Assembly (NCBI RefSeq): GCF_019890615.1
Contig: NZ_JAINVZ010000007.1
Span: 62,001 to 126,000 of the forward strand
DNA length: 64,000 nt
Direction of reading: 5' to 3'
Origin: Streptantibioticus parmotrematis
GTDB taxonomy: Bacteria > Actinomycetota > Actinomycetes > Streptomycetales > Streptomycetaceae
The notes under the pieces are model-generated. The model made no database searches. It was given only the letters and a program-made list of their open reading frames with translations, and was not told the origin of the DNA. How positions within the stretch are numbered: position 1 is the stretch's first letter; each line of letters opens with the position of its first letter. This document shows positions 60,230 through 61,772 of the stretch, piece after piece. The translations under genes and the position numbers were made by a program.

Positions 60230-60338
60230 CCCGGCCGACGGCCGGGGGCGTCACCCGCCACCCGTCACCCGCACGTTGCCAAGGCCGCGTCTGATTTCCG
60301 CCAGTCGTGCGAGCCGGGGATGACGGAGACTGGAAGAC

Positions 60339-61772
60339 GTGATCGACGCGGAGACCGGATACCAGGCGGTGCGCAGCCGTGACGCGCGGTTCGACGGGGT
60401 GTTCTTCACGGCGGTGCGGACCACCGGCATCTACTGCCGCCCCAGCTGCCCGGCCGTCACCCCCAAGCGGCACAACGTCAGCTTCTACCCGACCGCCGCC
60501 GCGGCCCAGTCCGCCGGATACCGGGCCTGCCGCCGCTGCCGCCCGGACGCGGTGCCCGGCTCACCGGAGTGGGACGTGCGCGCGGACCTGGTCGGCCGGG
60601 CGATGCGGCTGATCCGGGACGGCGTGGTGGACCGCGACGGGGTGGCGGGGCTGGCGGAGCGCCTGGGCTACAGCGAGCGGCAGGTGCACCGGCAGCTGAC
60701 CGCCGAGGTCGGCGCGGGACCGGTCGCCCTCGCCCGGGCGCAGCGCGCGCAGACCGCGAGAGTGCTGTTGCAGACCACGGCGCTGCCGATCACGCAGGTG
60801 GCGTTCGCGGCCGGGTTCGCCAGCGTGCGGCAGTTCAACGACTCGATCCGCGAGATCTACGACCGCACCCCCACCGAACTGCGCGCGGCCGCACCCGCCC
60901 CGCGCCCCGGCCGCACCCCTGCCGGAGCGGGCCGCGCCGTCCTGTCGCTGCGGCTGGCCCACCGCGGTCCGTACGACGCGGCGGCCGTCTTCGACTACCT
61001 GCGGCGGCACGCCGTGCCCGGGATCGAGGAAGTGGTCGGCGCACCGGATTCCCGCCGCTATCGGCGCACCCTGCGCCTCCCGCACGGCGCCGCGGTCGCC
61101 GAGGTCGCGGAGCCGAACGCCGCGGCCCGTGCCGGGAGTTGGCTGGAGTGCCGACTGCGCCTGAGCGACCTGCGCGACCTGACGACGGCCGTGCAGCGGG
61201 TGCGCCGGTTGTTCGACCTGGACGCGGACCCCGGAGCCGTGACGGCGCGGCTGGGCGCGGATCCACTGCTCGGGCCGCTGGTCGCGGCCCGGCCGGGCCT
61301 GCGTTCACCGGGCTCGGCGGATCCGGCCGAGACGGCGCTGTGCGCGGTCGCGGGTTCGCCGCGGGCGGCCGGGGACCTGGTGGCGGCGTACGGCGACCTG
61401 CTGCCGGGCGGGGCGGACGGCGGGCTCACCCATCTGTTCCCGACCGCGGCGACGCTCGCCGACGCCTACCCGGCGGAGTACGTGGACCCCGCGGTGCGCG
61501 CGGTGGCCGCCGCGCTCGACGACGGCACGCTGCGGCTCGACCCCGGCGCGGACCGCGAGCGGTCGGCCGGGGCGCTGCGGGCGCTGCCCGGCGTCGGACT
61601 GTGGACCACCGGATACGTGCGGATGCGGGCGCTGGGCGACCCGGACGTGTTCCTGCCGACCGGAGTCGTGGACGAGGAGACCGCCGAGCGCTGGCGGCCC
61701 TGGCGCTCGTACGCCCTGCACCACCTCTGGCAGGCCGACCGCGAGCGCTCCGCCGCGGTCGGGGCGTCCTGA
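60339..61772 (+). CDS. Ada-AlkA fusion, apparently lacking the AlkA catalytic Asp
   Basis: A 477-aa protein joining an Ada-type zinc domain (GIYCRPSC and YRACRRC, about residues 25-70), an AraC helix-turn-helix (VAGLAERLGYSERQVHRQL, AFAAGFASVRQFND) and an AlkA DNA glycosylase domain (LSLRLAHRGPYD, ALPGVGLWTTGYVRMRALG). In AlkA a catalytic Asp follows DVFLP in a helix before AERWxPWRSYA. Here DVFLPTGVVDEETAERWRPW is about 12 residues shorter and has Gly at that place. It may be inactive as a glycosylase, or serve mainly as a regulator. Starts at GTG. Confidence 0.9.
   Translation: MIDAETGYQAVRSRDARFDGVFFTAVRTTGIYCRPSCPAVTPKRHNVSFYPTAAAAQSAGYRACRRCRPDAVPGSPEWDVRADLVGRAMRLIRDGVVDRDGVAGLAERLGYSERQVHRQLTAEVGAGPVALARAQRAQTARVLLQTTALPITQVAFAAGFASVRQFNDSIREIYDRTPTELRAAAPAPRPGRTPAGAGRAVLSLRLAHRGPYDAAAVFDYLRRHAVPGIEEVVGAPDSRRYRRTLRLPHGAAVAEVAEPNAAARAGSWLECRLRLSDLRDLTTAVQRVRRLFDLDADPGAVTARLGADPLLGPLVAARPGLRSPGSADPAETALCAVAGSPRAAGDLVAAYGDLLPGGADGGLTHLFPTAATLADAYPAEYVDPAVRAVAAALDDGTLRLDPGADRERSAGALRALPGVGLWTTGYVRMRALGDPDVFLPTGVVDEETAERWRPWRSYALHHLWQADRERSAAVGAS

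What the first reader, a model, noticed from the sequence alone, without database searches (positions are those of the whole stretch)
60339..61772. Ada-AlkA fusion seems to have lost the catalytic aspartate helix
AlkA-type glycosylases need an Asp just after the DVFLP motif. Here the segment between DVFLP and AERWRPWRSYA has about 8 residues instead of about 20 and shows T-G where D is expected, although all flanking blocks are intact. This looks like an in-frame deletion that removes the active centre but keeps the fold ends, which could leave an alkylation-sensing regulator or an inactive enzyme.
Basis: partly seen in the sequence, partly recalled or inferred. Interest (0 to 1): 0.6.

Follow-up and report, generated by a model that had tools for sequence, protein, structure and literature searches.

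The report
Alkylation sensor with dead glycosylase domain
A bacterial DNA-damage sensor fused to a repair enzyme has lost the enzyme's active centre but kept the sensor; related bacteria did the same several times, in the genomes checked always alongside a second copy of the enzyme.

Summary
The ORF at 60339-61772 is an Ada-AlkA fusion whose catalytic Asp (E. coli D238) and its helix are missing. The other species held of the genus has the same gap, so it is not a sequencing error.

The loss is not unique. In a tree of 115 fusions, 63 are short and lack the helix; a single origin is rejected (AU p 0.0002). The Ada cysteines and HTH are kept; dN/dS is below 1 in every domain of 13 short pairs.

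All 41 short-class genomes tested hold a second AlkA (7 of 36 long-class do). Read in 33 of the 41, it is intact in 32 and frame-split in one. With about 3 independent contrasts, the association is not significant by phylogeny.

A conserved box, GTCCGA-N3-CCGCYAG, lies about 50 nt before the start codon of both copies and before 14 of 14 detached ogt2 genes.

Best reading: a methyl-phosphotriester sensor-activator carrying a pseudo-glycosylase, excision being left to the other copy. Inactivity and regulation are inferred from sequence; nothing was assayed. I found no description in the papers searched.

The parts
60289..60304 (+). Candidate Ada operator GTCTGATTTCCGCCAG, 50 nt before the start codon
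   Evidence: Conserved box in 60 of 62 short, 41 of 41 long, 10 of 10 outgroup, 29 of 30 type-2 upstream regions. In the window alone a pattern with up to 1 mismatch is expected 1.04 times by chance.
60326..60333 (+). GAGACTGG, possible -10 element (inference; transcript would be leaderless)
   Evidence: A loosely matched A-N-N-C/T-T-G-G element at 38-39 nt after the box seed in 55 of 60 short and 39 of 41 long rows
60339..61772 (+). Ada-AlkA fusion with eroded glycosylase centre (type-1, short class)
60360..60548 (+). Ada zinc-binding, methyl-acceptor head (C33, C37, C64, C67 kept)
   Evidence: Pfam PF02805 residues 8-70; cysteines in 62 of 63 short rows, one row gapped
60651..60887 (+). AraC-type helix-turn-helix
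   Evidence: Pfam PF12833 residues 105-183
60948..61322 (+). AlkA_N domain
   Evidence: Pfam PF06029 residues 204-328
61356..61364 (+). S340-P341-R342: site of the shortened wedge loop (E. coli 126-132 missing)
61479..61490 (+). Y381-V-D-P384 in place of the L-G-M-P loop
61584..61622 (+). HhH hairpin LPGVGLWTTGYVR, largely kept in this copy
61659..61682 (+). TGVVDEET: residue stretch where the catalytic Asp and its helix are missing
   Evidence: helix absent in the model
61692..61715 (+). WRPWRSYA scaffold block, kept
   Evidence: W, R, P, W and Y invariant in 63 of 63 short rows

Best explanation
The protein is a sensor-activator of the alkylation (Ada) response whose fused AlkA domain is a pseudo-glycosylase. 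Proposed steps: (1) C33 of the Ada zinc site takes a methyl group from a DNA phosphotriester; (2) the methylated protein binds the GTCYGA-N3-CCGCYAG box and activates its own promoter and the detached ogt2; (3) the AlkA domain folds but excises nothing; (4) base excision falls to the second Ada-AlkA copy (type-2, G000:C27), which keeps its catalytic residues and sits with its own ogt. With a second copy present, selection for glycosylase activity in copy 1 was relaxed; the DNA-facing parts were lost while the scaffold was kept. Shown from sequence: loss of active-centre elements, recurrence, kept sensor, shared box, second copy. Inferred: absence of activity, steps 1 and 2, the order of events and the reason the scaffold is kept.
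For: Catalytic Asp column: D in 52 of 52 long rows, 4 of 63 short rows. Wedge positions 128-132 gapped in 57-58 of 63 short, 0 of 52 long. Ada cysteines kept in 62 of 63 short rows, one gapped. dN/dS below 1 in each domain of 13 short pairs. One origin of the short class rejected, p-AU 0.0002. Second AlkA in 41 of 41 short-class and 7 of 36 long-class genomes. Box before type-1 and type-2 and before 14 of 14 detached ogt2 genes, against 1 of 15 attached ones and 3 of 2900 shuffled regions. In genus g14 (G026, G014, G034) the second AlkA has no Ada head but carries the box.
Against: No activity, binding or expression data. Asp-less HhH glycosylases exist (PMC11754123, abstract). Only about 3 independent contrasts tie Asp loss to the second copy. 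The second copy of G114 is split between two frames, and in 8 of the 41 short genomes it was seen as a match only. The window's own copy keeps the HhH hairpin and the residues aligned with W218, Y222 and W272. Genome-wide the degenerate box pattern is hardly above its reversed control, 51 against 45 in 12 genomes.
Confidence: 0.7

Rival explanations
1. The AlkA domain is a passenger in slow decay: only the sensor matters, and the rest is tolerated because truncation would destabilise the protein.
For: HhH region has the highest dN/dS of the three domains in 12 of 13 short pairs, 0.23-0.64; in short rows its mean entropy (1.24) exceeds that of the Ada head (0.35), while in long rows they are 1.06 and 0.57.
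Against: dN/dS stays below 1; R224, R226, D230, P231, D232, W260, R261, P262, W263 and Y266 are invariant in 63 of 63 short rows; the frame stays open to the end after at least three separate losses.
Confidence: 0.2
2. The domain is still an enzyme: an Asp-less glycosylase for very labile lesions, acting like TAG (recalled) or like the crenarchaeal HhH-GPD protein that uses a Glu.
For: PMC11754123 (abstract) reports an HhH-GPD protein with Ser at the Asp site that excises alkylated bases. The window copy keeps the HhH hairpin and the residues aligned with W218, Y222, W272.
Against: The lesion-contact loop is lost with the Asp; other short rows lose the hairpin and W272 as well; replacement letters at the Asp column vary freely.
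Confidence: 0.08
3. The gap is a sequencing or assembly error.
For: None found; reads were not available.
Against: Same gap in another species' assembly at 94% identity and an equally short segment in three genomes of genus g14; frame intact.
Confidence: 0.01

Closest known systems
Ada-AlkA fusion of actinobacteria (M. smegmatis, PMC7432924)
   Same: Ada head fused to AlkA, with a separate Ogt that binds it (section 4 part 1 read).
   Different: Here the AlkA active centre is lost. The paper sections read report DNA binding without sequence specificity and Ogt binding, and no glycosylase assay; whether that protein keeps the Asp was not checked.
E. coli AlkA (1MPG, 1DIZ)
   Same: AlkA fold over the C-terminal 260 residues (Foldseek TM 0.77 by target length; phmmer E 3.7e-18).
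   Different: Catalytic Asp helix and wedge loop missing; fused to an Ada sensor.
E. coli Ada
   Same: Zinc cysteines of the N-terminal head aligned (1U8B) and an AraC-type HTH.
   Different: C-terminal partner is a pseudo-AlkA instead of an Ogt domain; Ogt is a separate protein.
TAG and the crenarchaeal HhH-GPD protein (PMC11754123, abstract)
   Same: HhH fold without the conserved Asp (TAG: recalled).
   Different: Those are active enzymes; here the lesion-contact loop is lost too and a canonical copy coexists.

Membership tests
[quoted passage not shown]
   Pfam AlkA_N E 8.6e-36; model TM 0.77 to 1MPG by target length
AlkA (3-methyladenine DNA glycosylase II) | Catalytic Asp (E. coli D238) and its helix | tested here: not met
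   G442 at the column, helix absent
AlkA (3-methyladenine DNA glycosylase II) | Wedge and lesion-contact loop (E. coli 124-132; role recalled) | tested here: not met
   S340-P341, then 126-132 missing
AlkA (3-methyladenine DNA glycosylase II) | HhH-GPD Pfam domain | tested here: not met
   Not among hits at E 0.001
AlkA (3-methyladenine DNA glycosylase II) | Base excision activity | not testable with these tools
   Needs an assay
Ada-type methyl-phosphotriester sensor (AdaA) | Four zinc cysteines including the methyl acceptor | tested here: met
   C33, C37, C64, C67; aligned with N-Ada
Ada-type methyl-phosphotriester sensor (AdaA) | AraC-type HTH | tested here: met
   HTH_18 E 1.9e-19
Ada-type methyl-phosphotriester sensor (AdaA) | Methylation-dependent activation of repair genes | not testable with these tools
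   Only a conserved upstream box was seen
TAG / Asp-less HhH glycosylases | Their own catalytic or pocket residues | not tested
   Not compared; named as a rival only

The most novel reading that the evidence does not exclude
In Streptomycetaceae a combined sensor and repair enzyme has repeatedly been converted, where a second copy was present, into a dedicated regulator in which the dead glycosylase fold serves a new role. The likeliest new role is a docking or allosteric module for the co-regulated Ogt2, rebuilding an E. coli Ada-like sensor-plus-Ogt unit from two polypeptides, while the second Ada-AlkA/Ogt operon keeps the excision work under a slightly different operator (GTCG instead of GTCC, with matching changes at HTH positions 117 and 165).
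Probability: 0.3. Interest if true: 0.75.

Novelty: new variant of a known kind. Interest (0 to 1): 0.58.

Why it matters
If this is right, a gene easily annotated as a 3-methyladenine glycosylase is not one in at least 118 of the 388 Streptomycetaceae genomes searched (a lower bound), and base excision there depends on another copy. It offers a natural, replicated series of enzyme-to-regulator conversions with graded intermediates, and a candidate operator that would make the actinobacterial Ada regulon directly testable.

Tried and rejected
Sequencing or assembly deletion: rejected, another species shares the gap. Single deletion with intact flanks: rejected, wedge loop also lost. Single origin of the short class: rejected by the AU test on the quick tree. 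'No Ogt next to type-1': my first count (0 of 63 short) was wrong because the regular expression required [VILMA]PCHR while Ogt2 mostly reads RPCHR; redone as 29 of 62 short and 26 of 42 long loci with an Ogt motif within 1 kb downstream (a notebook entry still carries the old count). Genome-wide operator count: the degenerate pattern is hardly above its reversed control, so it is not used as evidence by itself. The box at G000:C33:24682 has no ORF of 90 aa or more starting 10-200 nt downstream; unexplained. In one search minus-strand loci were translated in the wrong orientation; redone. Rows dropped before counts: partial, chance or distant loci (L003-L006, L083, L084, L107, L108, L110, L111, L114, L115, L130, L131, L141) and identical proteins; of the 168 rows left, the tree took 115 (105 of the family and 10 chosen outgroups), paralogues L002 and L008 and the other distant rows being left out. 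Three of the 80 genomes are not in the second-copy table: G354 (long, with type-2; its row was a duplicate), G205 (long, without) and G238 (no type-1 row). The pairs for dN/dS were chosen by me as close pairs. Ada-AlkA proteins outside Streptomycetaceae were not examined systematically for Asp loss.

Full report
What is there. The ORF 60339-61772 (+, GTG start, 477 aa) encodes an Ada zinc head (residues 8-70), an AraC-type HTH (105-183) and AlkA_N (204-328), followed by a region that Pfam does not call HhH-GPD at E 0.001. Against E. coli AlkA (1DIZ) the HhH region aligns end to end, but TGVVDEET stands where E. coli has 20 residues with the catalytic D238. G442 is at the D238 column and the following helix is absent. 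A second lesion lies upstream: E. coli Q124-L125 become S340-P341 and residues 126-132 are missing. This is the wedge and lesion-contact loop (role recalled). W422, Y426 and W464 (E. coli W218, Y222, W272) are still present.

It is not an artefact. The only other genome held of the same genus (G001) has the same gap at 94% identity. Its contig has the same length as that of Streptomyces sp. ICBB 8177, so it is probably that strain. Between the two, NG86 dN/dS is 0.06 (Ada+HTH), 0.13 (AlkA_N) and 0.29 (HhH).

It is not unique. In the family, 394 of 394 genomes have a match to the protein at E 0.001, though the best match is weak in two (G011, G215). A strict DNA pattern for DPDV-(7-17 aa)-WRPW occurs in 121 of 388 genomes. 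Three of these (G125, G168, G285) match only with lengths that are not multiples of three, leaving 118; the pattern misses some known short copies (for example G034, G014, G298), so this is a lower bound. Segment length is bimodal. In the 115-row tree set, 52 of 52 long rows (20 or more residues) hold D at the D238 column; 63 short rows (7-19 residues) lack the helix, 4 of them with a D aligned at that column. A quick maximum-likelihood tree that leaves the segment out needs 5 changes of the label, at least 3 forced by starred branches. Holding all short rows as one clade is rejected, p-AU 0.0002. The short groups are: the window's genus with genus g14 and G006; two groups in genus g7 (one with G016 nearby); and a large group in g10.

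The erosion is concerted and spares the scaffold. In short rows E. coli positions 128-132 are gapped in 57-58 of 63 (0 of 52 long), M174 in 56 of 63, and 240-246 in 57-63 of 63. W218 is kept in 13, Y222 in 15 and W272 in 21 of 63 (51, 50 and 52 of 52 long rows). By contrast R224, R226, D230, P231, D232, W260, R261, P262, W263 and Y266 are invariant in 63 of 63. The four Ada cysteines are kept in 62 of 63 short rows, the other row being gapped there. HhH dN/dS is 0.23-0.64 in 13 short pairs and 0.10-0.58 in 10 long pairs; one long pair reaches 1.07 in AlkA_N. AlphaFold models of the window protein (pLDDT 88.7, pTM 0.85) and of the Asp+ ortholog L040 (86.9, 0.73) are both of AlkA fold; helix 449-457 of L040 has no counterpart in the window model. 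TM to 1MPG by target length is 0.77 and 0.85.

A second copy. The own genome holds another full Ada-AlkA (type-2, my label; G000:C27:52500-53921, 57% identical) with the residues aligned to D238, Q124 and W272 intact. Among 77 genomes with a classified type-1 copy, 41 of 41 short-class and 7 of 36 long-class genomes hold a second AlkA (Fisher p 6e-15, which ignores relatedness). On the tree there are only 3 independent pairs on supported branches, concordant or tied, never opposed, so the association is suggestive, not established. Of the 41 short-class genomes, 37 have a type-2 fusion and 4 an AlkA without an Ada head. I read the second copy itself in 33 of the 41: 28 type-2 and 4 headless ones hold the Asp, and one (G114) is split between two frames; in 8 it is known from its match only. 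The 30 type-2 proteins read (two from long-class genomes) all keep D238, Q124, Q125, G216, P217, W218 and W272, and all 30 are followed by an ogt. In three genomes of genus g14 (two match Streptantibioticus contigs in length) the headless AlkA carries the box described below, so there sensor and glycosylase sit in different genes. G368 holds a third Ada-AlkA besides its short copy and its type-2.

The operator. Upstream of the window gene lies GTCTGATTTCCGCCAG (60289-60304), 50 nt before the start codon. The box occurs at similar distance in 60 of 62 short, 41 of 41 long, 10 of 10 outgroup and 29 of 30 type-2 upstream regions; single-base shuffles of these regions reached the same score (14 of 18) in 14 of 2860 draws. 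Its fourth base is C or T in 110 of 111 type-1 and outgroup boxes, where HTH position 165 is Q in 110; it is G in 29 of 29 type-2 boxes, with T, S or A at 165 and E at 117. These are two clades, hence about one contrast. A CANACTGG-like element follows at 38-39 nt, which suggests a leaderless transcript with the box beside the -35 region (inference). In the own genome a box precedes a solo ogt (ogt2, G000:C16:14139). Of 30 ogt loci fetched, 14 are detached from an Ada-AlkA gene and 14 of 14 carry a box with C as fourth base; of 15 attached ones 1 (L292) does; one (L308) was not resolved. Controls: 3 of 2900 shuffled regions and 0 of 29 reversed regions. Other genes after a box look like AlkB (G008), DHA2-type transporters (G008, G093) and flavin reductases (G001, G007); these names come from my reading of the sequences. 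Genome-wide the degenerate pattern is hardly above its reversed control (51 against 45 over 12 genomes, my sum), so single hits mean little.

How it most likely works. An Ada sensor, methylated at C33, activates its own gene and ogt2 from the box; its AlkA domain folds but does not cut; excision is done by type-2. The kept scaffold may dock Ogt, as the M. smegmatis Ada-AlkA does bind Ogt (PMC7432924, section 4 part 1), but this is a guess. Residual Asp-less activity is conceivable (PMC11754123, abstract) but unlikely with the wedge loop gone.

Known or not. Paper searches (listings seen) showed no description of Asp-less Ada-AlkA proteins or of this box. In the review PMC4437013 a word search for fusion, fused, Actinobacteria, Streptomyces, Mycobacterium and Ada box found nothing; it was not otherwise read. 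The library lacks most subscription papers.

Noticed in passing
G054:C32 (L248) and G191:C1:8994495-8995805 (L249): A third, distant Ada-AlkA type (about 37% identical to type-2); L249 seems to have lost the Asp segment, L248 seems to keep it.
   Followed up: no
L247 (G008:C26): An Ada-like regulator whose first zinc-site cysteine position reads Ser (TGTYSRPSC) in a protein that also has the start of an Ogt-like part.
   Followed up: no
G000:C1:426656-427156 (L004, L241), also G296 (L242): A stand-alone AlkA-like protein with FPAAEPRIHR or FPLHERRLH at the place of the catalytic Asp, so another possible Asp-less relative.
   Followed up: no
G000:C33:24682-24697: A fourth exact box in the own genome without a clear gene start nearby; the same letters stand before a flavin-reductase-like gene in G001.
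   Followed up: partly
L018 (G022) and L032 (G023): Long-class copies with large insertions (77 and 69 residues between DPDV and WRPW) after the catalytic Asp.
   Followed up: no
G368:C34:183050-184495: A third Ada-AlkA fusion with its own downstream ogt and an extra box (L292), in a genome that also has a short type-1 and a type-2 copy.
   Followed up: no
G114:C1:3221312-3222734 (L240): Type-2 fusion split between two frames, followed by an ogt; a frameshift or an assembly error.
   Followed up: no
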